NCBI GenBank assembly: GCA_019057385.1
Contig: JAHQJS010000004.1
Coordinates: 1,199,068 to 1,263,067, forward strand
From: Candidatus Borrarchaeum weybense
GTDB lineage: Archaea; Asgardarchaeota; Sifarchaeia; Borrarchaeales; Borrarchaeaceae
DNA: 64,000 nucleotides
Reading direction: 5' to 3'
Under the pieces are notes generated by a model. The model searched no databases. It was not told the origin of the DNA and saw only the letters and a list, made by a program, of their open reading frames with translations. A program made the translations under genes and the position numbers. Every line of letters begins with the position of its first letter. Positions within the stretch are counted from its first letter, which is position 1. Positions 14,494-54,567 of this stretch are shown here, piece by piece.

Positions 14494-14543
14494 GACCATA
14501 ACCACTTTTTCCTTACTGTTTTTCTATACTTATGGGATTAGGT

Positions 14544-14792
14544 TTACTTGAAAAGCCAATCTTCTCTTTTCTTTTTCATATGAGTCTCCAAGACAGTCTT
14601 TGTATGAATGTCTCCTACTGTTTCAAAAACCATGTGTGACTGAAGGGGTTTTTTTCTAGCTGGTTCAAATCCCTGAACTGGGCACAGTTCTATTGGTGTT
14701 TTAGCTAGAACTTTATGTTCAAAACAATCGCCTTTGACTTCATCTACTGGTTTGTAGTATTTACAATCCCTACAAATGAACTCTTCACGCAT
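14544..14792 (-). CDS. small four-cysteine protein
   Basis: The 82-residue protein has four cysteines spaced C-x2-C-x12-C-x13-C (C7, C10, C23, C37) and a charged C-terminus. The pattern resembles small metal- or Fe-S-binding subunits such as those of some glycyl-radical enzymes. I do not assign a function. Its ATG (14792-14790) lies inside the left copy of a 13-bp direct repeat that borders a structured element. Only AAGGGAA remains just upstream, while the fuller ribosome-binding sequence (GGAGAGGAAGGGAA on the minus strand) now lies beyond the element at about 15129-15143. Expression may therefore be altered. Confidence 0.65.
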   Translation of the reverse strand: MREEFICRDCKYYKPVDEVKGDCFEHKVLAKTPIELCPVQGFEPARKKPLQSHMVFETVGDIHTKTVLETHMKKKREDWLFK

Positions 14793-15134
14793 TTCCCTTA
14801 GGGAAGCGCCTGCCCTTTAGGGTGGGGAAGAATTGAGGGTGTTTTTCACTTTTATTAGGGCCTCTCCACTTTTAAATACGTGTTCTGAGATAGAGGTACG
14901 TGGTCTAAAGGCACACCTCTCATAGAAGTGGAAATGGTTAATGACCTCAAGGATGAGGAGCAGTAAACTGGTATAGCCCGACTCTATATGAGGATTACTG
15001 GGCTGGGCTGCGGTAAACACGCCCATGTGTTAGCGTGCGATGAGGTTGAAACTCTTTTGCAAAGAAGAGGACTGAGACCAAGCACAGCTAAAAGCCTCAC
15101 TGCTTTAGCGTGAGGTAGTTTACGCATTTCCCTT
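14787..15134. mobile_element. non-autonomous palindromic element A (IS200/IS605-like ends)
   Basis: A non-coding, structured insert of about 320 bp is bounded by exact 13-bp direct repeats ACGCATTTCCCTT (14787-14799 and 15122-15134). Terminal hairpins lie at 14809-14826 (CCTGCCC/GGGTGGG) and 15095-15115 (CCTCAC..GC/GC..GTGAGG, followed by TAGTTTAC). The second closely resembles right ends of tnpB-carrying IS605-family elements. Between them are several short stems (GAGGT/ACCTC, AGCCC/GGGCT, AACAC/GTGTT, CTCTT/AAGAG), as expected for an omega-RNA-like transcript. IS605 elements do not normally duplicate their target, so the 13-bp repeats are unusual. Confidence 0.6.
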
Positions 15135-15322
15135 CCTCTCCTTTTATCAAATGAAATCGGAATCTTTCACAACGTCATTATATCGATTTATTCATGCAAG
15201 ATTAGTTGTTATTGTATCACTATAATATATTTTCATGATATAAAATATTTTGTATGAGTTTTTTGACGAAAACTATTAATCCTTAAAACAATTAAGATAA
15301 TGTTCTAAAATGGTCTTAGGAG

Positions 15323-16369
15323 GTGAATCTATTAGTAGGATCTTACAGGCTGACTAAAGCAGTAAGGGTTCATGGTTGATCCTGTAAGTTGCCCCAAGCA
15401 GACCTAGAAAAGTTACTAGAGAGCATAGAAGTCTATCTACCCGAAGGTTCAGTTAAAGAGAAAATGTTAGCAGGAGCAGGAGATGACGCCGCAGTAATAC
15501 AGATTAGAGATGATCTAGCACTTATTGAAACTGTAGATTTTTTCACACCAAATATTGACGAGCCAATGATTCAAGGAGAAATCTCTGCATGTAATACAAC
15601 TAATGACATTTATGCGATGGGCGCTGTAGACATTCTTAGTGTACTAGTTGTTATGGGTGCACCAACAAATATGCCTTTTGAAATCTCTCGAGATCTTTTA
15701 AAGGGATTTAAAAATTTCTGTGAACGTCTAGGAACACACATTGTCGGCGGACATACTATAATAAATCCATGGCCTTTCATTGGTGGTTGCGCACTAGGTT
15801 TGGCGCACCCAAATAGCGTTGTCTATAATCGCGGTGCAAAAGTTGGAGACATTCTTCTCTTAACAAAACCTTTAGGAACGCAACCTGCGATGGCAGCATA
15901 TCGTTTACTCAAAGAAGAACAACAATTAATTGATTTATCTGAATATTTACCCACTAAAGTAATTGATCGTGCAATACAAAAAGCAATTGAGATAATGACA
16001 ACAACAAACAGGCCAATAGCAAAAATTATGCAGGAAATCAAGGTTAATGCCGCAACGGATGTAACCGGCTTTGGATTGACTGGGCATGCACGTGAAGTAG
16101 CAACACAAAGCAAGGTAAATATTGTGATTGATACTATGCCGATCATAAAAGGAACTAATATCCTTTCTGATCAACTAGGCTATTCATTAATGGAGGGTAC
16201 ATCTGCAGAGACTGCTGGAGGAATGTTACTCTCGTTATCACGTGATAATGTTGATCTATTCAAAGAAAAACTAATAGAAAGAGGAATAAAATCCTTTGAA
16301 ATAGGGCATGTTAAGGAGGGCAGCGGACAGGTGAATATTGTGCCTGATATAAGAATTATTGAAGTTTAG
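15323..16369 (+). CDS. selD: selenophosphate synthetase SelD, selenocysteine-containing (UGA at codon 19)
   Basis: This enzyme makes selenophosphate from selenide and ATP, the selenium donor for Sec-tRNA. A standard caller starts at TTG 15389, but the same frame continues upstream through TGA (15377-15379) and reads YRLTKAVRVHG-U-SCKLPQ. That aligns with the GUGCK / GCGCK active-site motif of SelD, so the TGA sits exactly at the catalytic Cys/Sec position. An in-frame GTG at 15323 overlaps an AGGAGG motif; upstream the frame closes at TAG 15317-15319. Other conserved parts are GAGDDAAVI, ETVDFFTP, ACNTTNDIYAMGA and GGHTI. A SECIS-like hairpin follows the stop. The protein is selenocysteine-dependent unless reading starts after the TGA, which would delete the active site. 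Confidence 0.92.
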
Positions 16370-16443
16370 ACGGCGCGTAATGAAAAAGACAGAAACCGCA
16401 AGGAGGGTCTTTAGAGCTTTCCACCAATGCAGGTGGCACCGTC
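16369..16443 (+). promoter_or_regulatory. SECIS-like element in the selD 3' UTR
   Basis: A lower stem GACGGCGC (16369-16376) pairs with GCACCGTC (16436-16443) with one mismatch, and a side hairpin CCACC/GGTGG lies within. Inside is TGAA (16381-16384) opposite AGAG (16413-16416), a possible kink-turn with tandem G-A pairs. Above it is the perfect stem AAAGAC/GTCTTT, then a 5' bulge GAAA opposite a single A, and CC-GCAA-GG at the tip. The GAAA/A bulge under a GC cap is the archaeal SECIS pattern, and the TGAN/NGAN quartet is the eukaryotic one. Position directly after a UGA-containing selD supports the call. Confidence 0.75.
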
Positions 16444-16463: not shown

Positions 16464-17372
16464 CTATTTCTCTCCATAGTCAACATTGCCAAATGCTTTG
16501 TTGTATTCATTGCTGAGTAACTCGTCGACCACATGCGTATACTTCTGCGTCGTAGATAGATTTGAATGCCCCAGCTGTTGTTGAATAACCCTTACATCCA
16601 TACCTCTGGATAAAGCAGTCGTAGCAAAGAAATGTCGTAGTTTATGACAACTGATAGCGGGATTTATACCTGCCAGATCTCGATATTTTGCAACTATATG
16701 TTGAATGGTACGAATGGCAATTCTTTTCCCATTCCTACTTATAAATAATGCATCATTTTCTTCGATCTTAGGTCGGATTTTTAAGTAATCGTTGATTAGA
16801 TCAAGCGCTGTAGTGCTAATTTTAACGTATCTGTGTTTTCCTCCCTTTGAAACAAGCCTTAGCGTTTCCTTTTCAAAATTGATATCTTTTAAACTCAAGT
16901 TATGGATGCCTTTTACACGAGCTCCAGTATAGATAAAAACAGCTAAAATCGCTAAATCACGAGTCTTATAATTTGAATTTCCTTCTTTGACAGTCTCAAT
17001 AAGTTTATGTATTTCTTTTTCCGTGGGAAAAATTGGCAATGTATGATCTAGTTTTGGTGTTTTGATTTCACCCATTGGACTTGTCTTAAGGTATTTCTCT
17101 CTTAACAAAATGTCATAGAATGTTCTGAGAGTCGAAACCTTTCGAGCTAAAGTGGTTTTTTTGTATCCTTTATCGCGTTTTAAATGAACTAAGAAGGCTC
17201 TAATATCTCTTGTTGTGGCATTTATAAGGGGTTTTTTAGTGAACTTGGAGAACAACGTCAGATCGTGAAGATACTGATTAAGGGAGGAACTTGCAAGCCC
17301 TTCTTCAACTTCTTTGATCACACGGAATTGATCGATTAATTCTTCATCAGATAAAACTTTTGTTTCCGACAT
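16464..17372 (-). CDS. tyrosine recombinase (XerC/XerD/XerA-like integrase)
   Basis: The 302-residue protein has an N-terminal SAM-like core-binding domain (about 20-105) and a catalytic domain with all six active-site positions. These are Arg in TGARVKGIHNL, Lys in GGKHRYV, His and Arg in CHKLRHFFAT, His in LGHSNLSTT and the Tyr nucleophile in QKYTHV. Size and motifs match chromosomal Xer recombinases such as archaeal XerA, which resolve chromosome dimers. No attachment sites or phage genes lie nearby, so an integrase of a lost element is the less likely alternative. It is convergent with selD, and the SECIS lies between their stops. Confidence 0.88.
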   Translation of the reverse strand: MSETKVLSDEELIDQFRVIKEVEEGLASSSLNQYLHDLTLFSKFTKKPLINATTRDIRAFLVHLKRDKGYKKTTLARKVSTLRTFYDILLREKYLKTSPMGEIKTPKLDHTLPIFPTEKEIHKLIETVKEGNSNYKTRDLAILAVFIYTGARVKGIHNLSLKDINFEKETLRLVSKGGKHRYVKISTTALDLINDYLKIRPKIEENDALFISRNGKRIAIRTIQHIVAKYRDLAGINPAISCHKLRHFFATTALSRGMDVRVIQQQLGHSNLSTTQKYTHVVDELLSNEYNKAFGNVDYGEK

Positions 17373-51898: not shown

Positions 51899-52999
51899 TT
51901 AAACTTCTTCCATACTAACCACAGGAACAAGTGGAAAGTAGTTAGAGGACTGGGGACCATATACTCCCAGGGATAGCCCGCGATCTCGTATGTTGCATGC
52001 GGCGTTATAGTCGGCGTCACCCTTATAACCGCAAGCTGGACATACGAATTTTTCATCTCGACGGATACCCCTGCTTCCACACTTGTGACAGACTTGACTC
52101 GACCAGTATGGGTACACCTCTATCAGGAAAACACGGTTTTCCTCGCAGAGCAACTCCAATTTGGTACAAGCATGACGATAAGCCCAGTGTGAGAGCAGTC
52201 GGTTAGTGTAACGATTTCTTCGCTTCTTTTTATATTTTCGCGCTTTCTTACTTCGTCCTTTCTTCACATCTCGTAAGCGTTCGATCACTAGCACTCTTAT
52301 TCTCGTGAAATCTATCTTCTTCAACTCACTATTGATGTGTTCTTTAATTATTAGGTGGCTTTTTTTCCTTCTGTAAAACCGCTCTATTTCCTGTTTCAAT
52401 GTTCCTCCAACGATTTGACCATCAGATATCACTGCTAGTTTGCGAAAGCCCAGGTCCAGACCTACCATCTCTCCCAATTTTCTTATTGGGGGCAGTTGCT
52501 TCTCGAAGAAGACATCAAGGAAAAAGCCTTGTTTGGTTCTTCGTAGCCTACAGGACTTCAATAACTCCCAACCCTTATTATAAAAAGAGTTAAAGTGATG
52601 ATGTCGTTTGGTTGGCAGATAAATGGGTCTGCCACCTAAAATAGAGATTTTGATCCAGAGGTCAAAGGTGTTGTTGCCTTTTTTAATTTGCGCAAAGCGT
52701 TGGTCCAGTTCAAGTGTGGCTTTACAAATGACTGGTTTGGTTTTTTTGGTACGTTTACGCTGAGACTTGACATTCTGGAGTGCCTGTTTGGCGGCACATT
52801 GCTTGTATCGTTCTGTCAGTGATGTCCTTATGTGCAGGTAATATTTTTTAGGGACAAATGAGCCTTCGAATATATTATGATTCCAGAGGGTGTTGATGCA
52901 TTTCTGCATAAAACTGAGATATTCATCAATTAAGTTATTCAGTATACTTTGTTTAAGTTTAGTCACATAGTTTAAGCTAAGGGTGGCCCGCCTAATCAC
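51899..52999 (-). CDS. tnpB: TnpB (IS605/IS1341-type RNA-guided nuclease)
   Basis: The 366-residue TnpB, the transposon relative of Cas12, has an N-terminal helical and basic region and a RuvC core: Asp in GLDLGFRKLAV, Glu in VLVIERLRDVKKG, and final Asp in GDADYNAACNI. A zinc ribbon CHKCGS...CPACG lies before that Asp. Start is GTG (MIRRATLSLNYV) with AAAGGA upstream. No tnpA transposase is adjacent. Just past the stop a small hairpin (CTAC/GTAG, about 51879-51890) marks a possible right end, where the guide part of its omega-RNA would lie. All catalytic residues look intact. Confidence 0.93.
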   Translation of the reverse strand: MIRRATLSLNYVTKLKQSILNNLIDEYLSFMQKCINTLWNHNIFEGSFVPKKYYLHIRTSLTERYKQCAAKQALQNVKSQRKRTKKTKPVICKATLELDQRFAQIKKGNNTFDLWIKISILGGRPIYLPTKRHHHFNSFYNKGWELLKSCRLRRTKQGFFLDVFFEKQLPPIRKLGEMVGLDLGFRKLAVISDGQIVGGTLKQEIERFYRRKKSHLIIKEHINSELKKIDFTRIRVLVIERLRDVKKGRSKKARKYKKKRRNRYTNRLLSHWAYRHACTKLELLCEENRVFLIEVYPYWSSQVCHKCGSRGIRRDEKFVCPACGYKGDADYNAACNIRDRGLSLGVYGPQSSNYFPLVPVVSMEEV

Positions 53000-53876: not shown

Positions 53877-54235
53877 GAGACCCCCCAACATGTTGGGGGG
53901 AGGAATTGAGGTTGGGCGTTGCTCACACTACCCTTTCTGCGGAGACAGGGTTTGGTGTACCCAACCTCAGGTGGTGTGTTAATGACGGGTACTCGCAAGT
54001 CCCGCCGCTCCCCACACCAAGGGAGTAGGTTCTCTTCGCCAAAGTTATCAGTCAGTACTATACGATGATCACTGAGAGTTTCCTCTCTGTTTAAACCACC
54101 GTTTACAGAGCAAAGGACTAGAGAAGCATCCTTTGGTGTGTTCTTGAACTCTCCTGATAACGTAGATACCGCCATAGACTATATGACCTCTCTTAGGCTA
54201 ATCAACCAATTACTCTTGCTCCTCACGGAACAAGC
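53877..54235. mobile_element. structured palindromic element B splitting MNT and HEPN
   Basis: This non-coding, GC-rich insert of about 360 bp is bordered by the hairpins CCCCCCAACA/TGTTGGGGGG (53881-53900) and CTTGCTCC/GGAACAAG (54215-54234). A long compound stem, TGAGGTTGGG with CCCAACCTCA (about 53907-53970), lies inside, with further stems such as CTCTGT/ACAGAG and GACGGG/CCCGCC. The left hairpin is followed by AGGAATTGAGG, similar to AAGAATTGAGG in element A. The last residues of MNT, including its stop, overlap the right hairpin, showing that the element entered the operon. Confidence 0.6.
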
Positions 54236-54567
54236 CCTCTATTTTTTTGGAGGGTGATTGACAATCGAATGCCTTCCTTTAGAATGTTCTTAATTATAGG
54301 ATCTCCTTTCTTATGACGATATTCTTCTTTGGAGAGAAAAACTAAAGAGACAGGCACAGAGTACTTAAGATATATTTCCGAAAGTTCATTTTGAAGAGCG
54401 TCCCTTTTATTGTTATCTCCTACAATTAGCAAATCAAGATCACTGTCTGGACGGTAATTACCAGTTGCAAATGAACCATAAATAATTGCCAAGTCAATTG
54501 ATTCTTCATTGTTCTTCAGGATTTTTTTCAGAAGATCAATTATTTCTTTTTCGTATAAATATAACAC
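54223..54567 (-). CDS. MNT-type minimal nucleotidyltransferase (antitoxin)
   Basis: The protein has about 114 residues and the polymerase-beta-fold motif GSFATGNYRPDSDLDLLIV (GS-x10-DxD), plus a third acidic site further on. MNT antitoxins AMPylate HEPN toxins. Start GTG 54567 (MLYLYEKEIIDLL) has GAGGTC 7 nt upstream. ATG 54588 is an alternative. The C-terminal tail after RLSITL (about eight residues) seems to come from the border of element B, so the original end is altered. Confidence 0.85.
   Translation of the reverse strand: MLYLYEKEIIDLLKKILKNNEESIDLAIIYGSFATGNYRPDSDLDLLIVGDNNKRDALQNELSEIYLKYSVPVSLVFLSKEEYRHKKGDPIIKNILKEGIRLSITLQKNRGLVP

What the first reader, a model, noticed from the sequence alone, without database searches (positions are those of the whole stretch)
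15323..16443. SelD is a selenoprotein: in-frame UGA at the active site plus a SECIS in the 3' UTR
TGA at 15377-15379 lies in HG-U-SCK, exactly the active-site position of GUGCK in known SelD. The hairpin at 16369-16443 combines an archaeal GAAA/A bulge and GC cap with a eukaryote-like TGAA/AGAG quartet. Such mixed features were reported for Lokiarchaeota as a link between archaeal and eukaryotic Sec decoding. A standard gene caller truncates this gene.
Basis: partly seen in the sequence, partly recalled or inferred. Interest (0 to 1): 0.75.

Follow-up and report, generated by a model that had tools for sequence, protein, structure and literature searches.

The report
Asgard SelD selenoprotein with three-helix SECIS
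This Asgard archaeon (Borrarchaeum) makes a selenium-containing enzyme by reading one stop codon as selenocysteine, as many of its relatives do, but the RNA signal that permits it carries a conserved extra hairpin that the published descriptions I could read do not mention.

Summary
Window 15323-16369 encodes selenophosphate synthetase (SelD, 348 aa) with one in-frame UGA (15377-15379) at the catalytic position (HG-U-SCK), and a SECIS-like RNA lies at 16369-16443. The organism is a Candidatus Borrarchaeum (Sifarchaeia); B. yapensis has a 97%-identical copy. The genome holds the whole selenocysteine kit: SecS, adjacent PSTK and EFSec, and tRNA-Sec with a 31-nt T-arm intron. Of 150 SelD matches listed for Asgard genomes, 146 carry an in-frame UGA. 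Sec-containing SelD with type II 'AGAAA' SECIS in Borrarchaeales is already published (Huang 2024), so the gene is a new member of a known kind.

It is a three-way junction: lower stem P1, a 3-nt-loop tandem G.A core with P2, and a second 3' hairpin P3 (16421-16436) next to P1. P3 covaries independently in Thorarchaeia (35 sequences) and Lokiarchaeia (28), has a GCR loop in 85% of elements (7% in shuffles), and also appears in FrhD SECISes. This fits the 'k-junction' pattern; geometry and bound protein are inferred.

Side finding: selD in two other Asgard families is interrupted by 30-34 nt inserts resembling archaeal bulge-helix-bulge introns.

The parts
15323..16369 (+). selD (selenophosphate synthetase), 348 codons from GTG 15323, stop TAG 16367-16369; start codon uncertain
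15377..15379 (+). in-frame TGA decoded as selenocysteine (U19, HG-U-SCK)
15318..15326 (+). AGGAGGTGA, extended Shine-Dalgarno-like sequence overlapping the only canonical in-frame start (GTG 15323)
16369..16443 (+). SECIS element, three-way junction, beginning at the last base of the stop codon
16369..16373 (+). SECIS P1 (C helix) 5' arm GACGG, pairs with 16439-16443
16377..16378 (+). SECIS P1b 5' arm GU (2 bp with 16416-16417), followed by the 3-nt loop AAU 16379-16381
16380..16383 (+). AUGA of the SECIS core (tandem G.A with GA 16414-16415)
16385..16390 (+). SECIS P2 (NC helix) 5' arm AAAGAC, pairs with 16407-16412
16391..16395 (+). AGAAA unpaired adenines, then CC(16396-16397)-GCAA-GG(16402-16403) ministem: type II apex
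16414..16415 (+). GA of the SECIS core, 3' strand
16421..16436 (+). SECIS P3 (third helix): CCACC-AAUGCA-GGUGG hairpin on the non-bulged strand
16439..16443 (+). SECIS P1 3' arm CCGUC

Best explanation
The locus is a Sec-containing selenophosphate synthetase of a Borrarchaeum archaeon. UGA 15377 is decoded as selenocysteine by the archaeal/eukaryotic-type machinery of the same genome (tRNA-Sec charged with Ser, phosphorylated by PSTK, converted by SecS using selenophosphate from SelD itself, delivered by EFSec). The signal is the SECIS immediately after the stop codon, about 990 nt downstream of the UGA. The SECIS is not a single hairpin: P1, a core with a 3-nt loop and tandem G.A pairs leading into P2, and a third hairpin P3 on the opposite strand next to P1. 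This is the layout of a k-junction and is shared by Asgard selD and FrhD SECISes. Shown: gene, UGA, machinery, conserved and covarying P1/P1b/P2/P3. Inferred: Sec incorporation itself, the kinked fold, and that P3 with its GCR loop helps recruit EFSec or a ribosomal L7Ae-family protein in place of SBP2, which Asgard archaea lack.
For: SelD identity and UGA; conservation of the UGA across Asgard SelD. Machinery: SecS 490 bits vs cut-off 225; SelB/EFSec 287 vs 242; PSTK 187 bits, the best family but under its cut-off, in the gene next to EFSec; tRNA-Sec 76 bits, UCA anticodon, 89 nt after removal of a 31-nt T-arm intron. SECIS conserved 75/77 amid diverged flanks; single window hit of a Loki-only model. 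P1/P2/P3 emerge as the leading helices from sequence-only alignments of Thorarchaeia (95.9% of cells paired, 12 of 16 pairs with double changes, slid controls at most 43%) and Lokiarchaeia (98.3%, 10 of 15; slid at most 52%); P1b 100% paired with changes on both sides in both pairs. 83 of 92 selD elements score at least 35 in the grammar vs 3.1% of shuffles; the P3 loop contains GCR in 85% vs 6.7% in shuffles, although the grammar ignores loop sequence. FrhD SECISes show P3 too.
Against: No expression, mass-spectrometry or reporter data. tRNA-Sec is below Rfam's gathering score, probably because of the intron, and ARAGORN misses it. The window's P3 loop (AAUGCA) departs from the commonest NGCRA pentaloop. 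A few selD elements and 2 of 13 FrhD UTRs are not caught by the grammar. The Loki-only model does not recover the FrhD elements at E<1, so P3 there rests on grammar and inspection. k-junction geometry cannot be tested by sequence.
Confidence: 0.9

Rival explanations
1. The UGA is a real stop or an error: SelD is a pseudogene or starts at TTG 15389.
For: Standard ORF calling gives 15389-16369.
Against: The coding sequence upstream of the UGA (RLTKAVRVHG) is conserved and the UGA sits at the catalytic residue across Asgard SelD (146 of 150 listed matches carry it); full Sec machinery is present.
Confidence: 0.02
2. Sec is inserted, but P3 is not part of the functional SECIS: it is an unrelated 3'-end hairpin (for example a stability or processing element) and the functional SECIS is only core, P2 and apex, as in the published models.
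For: Published Asgard models use core, upper stem and apex; a review states that the Loki SECIS has one apical loop (PMC9499178).
Against: P3 lies inside P1, not beyond it: P1 pairs across P3, with 0 nt between P3 and P1 in 67 of 88 parsed elements; P3 covaries in two clades and occurs with two protein families.
Confidence: 0.2
3. The element is a true mixed archaeal/eukaryotic SECIS, in which the methanogen GAA/A motif in the apex is itself functional.
For: The apex reads AGAAA-CC-GCAA-GG-A, like the methanogen kink-turn-like motif (GAA opposite A, 2-3 GC pairs; PMC9622424); Thorarchaeia have similar apices.
Against: Only 2 GC pairs against the 3-6 required by the published eaSECIS criterion; its authors judge such motifs in Asgards as probably not functional; a lokiarchaeal vhuU SECIS did not work in Methanococcus maripaludis (PMC11881835).
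Confidence: 0.15

Closest known systems
Asgard Sec-containing SelD with eSECIS-like type II element (Huang et al. 2024, PMC11227280)
   Same: UGA position, archaeal machinery, AUGA_GA core, AGAAA unpaired adenines reported for Sifarchaeia/Borrarchaeales selD, ministem apex
   Different: That paper's text describes core, upper stem, apex, internal loop and lower stem; no third helix is mentioned
Lokiarchaeota Sec system (Mariotti 2016; not held here, read through citing papers)
   Same: Same machinery; tRNA-Sec with a 31-nt T-arm intron; eukaryote-like SECIS
   Different: A review reports a single apical loop for the Loki SECIS; the loki selD elements examined here have a second hairpin
k-junction of TPP riboswitches and DUF-3268 RNA (PMC4005666, PMC10573300)
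   Same: Tandem G.A pairs after a short loop; [quoted passage not shown] bases 5' of the loop pairing with the opposite strand between the C and T helices
   Different: Different RNA and function; no extra base between the two G.A nucleotides; fold not determined
Methanogen (euryarchaeal) SECIS
   Same: 3' UTR location; kink-turn-like logic; GAA/A-like apex
   Different: Lacks the complete eSECIS-like arrangement (PMC11227280); 33 nt on the 3' side of the fruA SECIS region can be removed without loss (PMC9622424)

Membership tests
SelD / selenophosphate synthetase, Sec form | Full-length SelD homology over curated cut-off | tested here: met
   384 bits vs 291 and 257 vs 125
SelD / selenophosphate synthetase, Sec form | Sec/Cys position in the N-terminal loop encoded by in-frame UGA | tested here: met
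   HG-U-SCK; conserved
SelD / selenophosphate synthetase, Sec form | Sec physically present in the protein | not testable with these tools
   needs mass spectrometry or 75Se labelling
Sec-utilizing organism (at least three machinery genes plus one selenoprotein, criterion of PMC11227280) | SecS, PSTK, EFSec, tRNA-Sec | tested here: met
   PSTK by best-family match and adjacency to EFSec
Asgard eSECIS-like type II (criteria of PMC11227280) | GA_[G/A]A core | tested here: met
   AUGA 16380-16383 / GA 16414-16415
Asgard eSECIS-like type II (criteria of PMC11227280) | upper stem 7-15 bp with at most 2 mismatches; bulge 4-12 nt; ministem 2-8 bp; loop 2-6 nt | tested here: met
   7 positions with one A.A mismatch (7 bp perfect in B. 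yapensis); 8 nt; 2 bp; GCAA
eaSECIS (methanogen type, criteria of PMC11227280) | GAA_A bulge between a lower stem and an upper stem of 3-6 bp | tested here: not met
   GAAA present but the cap is 2 bp
k-junction | short loop followed by tandem G.A / A.G pairs | tested here: met
   sequence pattern only: AAU-GA / GA
[quoted passage not shown]
   P3 covariation
k-junction | kinked fold with coaxial C and T helices and cross-strand hydrogen bonds | not testable with these tools
   needs FRET or a crystal structure

The most novel reading that the evidence does not exclude
SECIS elements of Asgard archaea (selD and FrhD genes at least) are three-way k-junctions whose third helix, capped by a GCR-containing loop, is a distinct recognition site used for Sec decoding in the absence of SBP2; eukaryotic SECISes would then descend from a more elaborate ancestor by loss of this helix.
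Probability: 0.5. Interest if true: 0.72.

Novelty: new variant of a known kind. Interest (0 to 1): 0.5.

Why it matters
How archaea connect a SECIS to EFSec without SBP2 is an open question (PMC9499178). A conserved extra helix in the Asgard SECIS is a concrete, mutable candidate for that contact, and it changes the picture of what the ancestor of the eukaryotic SECIS looked like. It also gives a better search model for selenoproteins in Asgard genomes, which gene callers truncate.

Tried and rejected
Rfam scan of the window finds no SECIS (only a HEARO RNA). Rfam's tRNA-Sec model fails in this genome; a model from Asgard relatives was needed. A second SelD copy, seen in many lokiarchaea, was not found here. 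The idea that a UAG stop for selD is odd in an organism with PylS was dropped: UAG ends 14 of 46 window ORFs. A paper search for an SECIS three-way junction found nothing relevant by title and abstract; Mariotti 2016 is not held, so a figure there showing P3 cannot be excluded.

Full report
The gene. Window 15323-16369 (+) reads, with TGA as U, as a 348-residue protein containing HG-U-SCK. NCBIfam places it as SelD well above the curated cut-offs, and the closest solved relatives are human SEPHS1 and other selenide, water dikinases. Table-11 ORF calling starts it after the UGA, at TTG 15389, so the remark about truncated annotation is right.

The organism. The only hit in the named genome collection is Candidatus Borrarchaeum yapensis (97% identity, L023). 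The window lies in a 4.18 Mb, 8-contig genome, whose phylum search returned two relatives of the same genus with the same gene and TGA. Borrarchaeum is an Asgard archaeon, placed in the class Sifarchaeia by PMC9723677.

The UGA. In the phylum-wide search, 126 of 228 genomes have SelD at E <= 1e-30, and 146 of the 150 listed matches carry an in-frame TGA. The four exceptions are three matches that start downstream of the Sec position and one (G206) in a 750-aa frame. In all 31 sequences listed (window locus, B. yapensis and 29 others) the TGA is at HG*[SA]CK. A sequencing error is excluded.

The machinery. SecS (C6:679061), PSTK directly followed by EFSec (C7:282077-284296) and tRNA-Sec (C6:464920-465039) are in the same genome. 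PSTK scores below its NCBIfam cut-off but that family is its best match. The tRNA has a UCA anticodon and, after removal of a 31-nt T-arm insert, 89 nt that fold with 9 acceptor and 4 T-stem pairs. A 31-nt T-arm intron is what is reported for Lokiarchaeota (PMC9499178). There is one SelD only. The genome also encodes PylS.

The SECIS. Between the window and B. yapensis the 77 nt from the stop codon to 16443 are 75/77 identical, like the coding sequence (1021/1044), whereas the intergenic DNA on either side is diverged. The element meets the published criteria for the Asgard eSECIS-like type II form, and AGAAA is the motif reported for Sifarchaeia/Borrarchaeales selD (PMC11227280). One departure, an A.A mismatch at the foot of P2, is a normal A-U pair in B. 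yapensis.

The third helix. The minimum-energy fold of the window element already contains a second hairpin around CCACC-AAUGCA-GGUGG, inside the lower stem. I collected 92 selD 3' ends from Asgard genomes and aligned two clades by sequence alone. In Thorarchaeia-like genomes (35 sequences) and Lokiarchaeia-like genomes (28 sequences) the leading helices are P1, P2 and P3. With P1+P2+P3, 95.9% and 98.3% of cells pair, against at most 43% and 52% when partners are slid; 12 of 16 and 10 of 15 pairs show changes on both sides, and none of 500 shuffles reach the observed covariation. Within P3 all five pairs have double changes in each clade. Two further pairs (P1b) directly below the G.A core pair in 100% of the lokiarchaeal sequences, with double changes in both. 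RNAalifold predicts P1, P2 and most of P3 unaided.

Generality. A grammar demanding P1, core, P2, P3 and P1' in that order scores at least 35 in 83 of 92 elements and in 3.1% of dinucleotide shuffles. It ignores loop sequence, yet the P3 loop contains GCR in 85% of parses against 6.7% in shuffles, most often CGCAA or UGCGA; 67 of 88 parses have no nucleotide between P3 and P1'. For 11 of 13 FrhD (FlpD family) genes with in-frame TGA, including three of this genome, at most 1 of 100 shuffles scores as high. A model built from lokiarchaeal selD alone hits the window once, at the SECIS, aligning P3 with P3, and hits L023, L028, L040, L156 and L159, but not the FrhD elements.

Interpretation. [quoted passage not shown] in the TPP riboswitch the third helix is coaxial with the C helix and two bases at the loop pair with the opposite strand between them (PMC4005666, PMC10573300). 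Here the 3-nt loop, tandem G.A, P1b, and P3 next to P1 give the same secondary-structure layout. The three-dimensional fold is inferred. Huang et al. do not mention a third helix in the sections I read, and a review reports one apical loop for the Loki SECIS. I could not read Mariotti 2016 or figures and supplements, so priority is uncertain. A functional role of P3 in recruiting EFSec or an L7Ae-family protein is a hypothesis.

In the Thorarchaeia-like genomes the selD stop UGA is itself the UGA of the SECIS core, and the 5' arm of P1 lies in the last codons (GAG ACC G.. TGA), where changes are matched on the 3' side.

A separate lead. In all seven genomes of families f14 and f15 whose selD covers the site, the gene is interrupted between the DVY of NDVY/SDVY and the following A-x-G by an insert of 30, 31 or 34 nt, mostly ending in TAA. 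Lengths of 31 and 34 break the frame, so the protein needs removal or bypass of the insert. The insert pairs as an inner hairpin and a central helix flanked by 3-nt bulges, with compensatory changes (92.9% paired), as in bulge-helix-bulge introns. In the paper I read (2009), cbf5 is the only archaeal gene with confirmed splicing of this kind (PMC2738675). If cut in the bulges as usual, a single AAA or AGA codon would remain. I rate an intron at about 0.7; translational bypassing is the rival. The window's own selD has no such insert.

Verdict. The finding is correct; the gene belongs to a known kind already catalogued for this lineage. The new content is the third helix of the SECIS and the selD insert in relatives.

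Noticed in passing
L028, L030, L031, L032, L034, L083, L084 (selD of Asgard families f14/f15): selD interrupted by 30-34 nt inserts with a bulge-helix-bulge-like fold, mostly ending in an in-frame TAA, between DVY and AxGA; likely an archaeal mRNA intron in a selenoprotein gene.
   Followed up: partly
Thorarchaeia-like selD 3' ends, e.g. L111-L127, L035-L052: The selD stop UGA is the UGA of the SECIS core and the 5' arm of the SECIS lower stem lies inside the last codons of the gene.
   Followed up: partly
L096 (G000:C6:464920-465039, -): tRNA-Sec of this Borrarchaeum has a 31-nt T-arm intron, as reported for Lokiarchaeota; Rfam's model at its gathering score and ARAGORN both miss it.
   Followed up: partly
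L214 (G000:C7:142596-143312, -): PylS over its curated cut-off: the organism probably recodes both UGA (Sec) and UAG (Pyl); selD itself ends in UAG.
   Followed up: partly
window 15318-15335: An extended Shine-Dalgarno sequence AGGAGGTGA has no canonical in-frame start at the usual spacing; the only canonical start (GTG) overlaps it. The same holds in the other Borrarchaeum genomes.
   Followed up: partly
window 16464-17372 (-): Tyrosine recombinase (Phage_integrase) convergent with selD, ending 20 nt after the SECIS.
   Followed up: no
window 54025-54262 (-) and 51899-52999 (-): HEARO RNA (Rfam, 132 bits) and, nearby, an ORF with a Cas12f1-like/TnpB TNB domain: probably IS200/IS605-type mobile element remains.
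   Followed up: no
L201, L202, L203 (G000): Three FlpD-family (FrhD/MvhD) genes of this genome carry one or two in-frame TGAs and SECIS-like 3' ends with a P3 hairpin.
   Followed up: partly
window 14494-15309: About 800 nt without a convincing ORF upstream of selD, with several inverted-repeat-like stretches.
   Followed up: no
G206:C64:40958-41734: A SelD match without any TGA inside a 750-aa open frame, possibly a Cys-form fusion protein.
   Followed up: no
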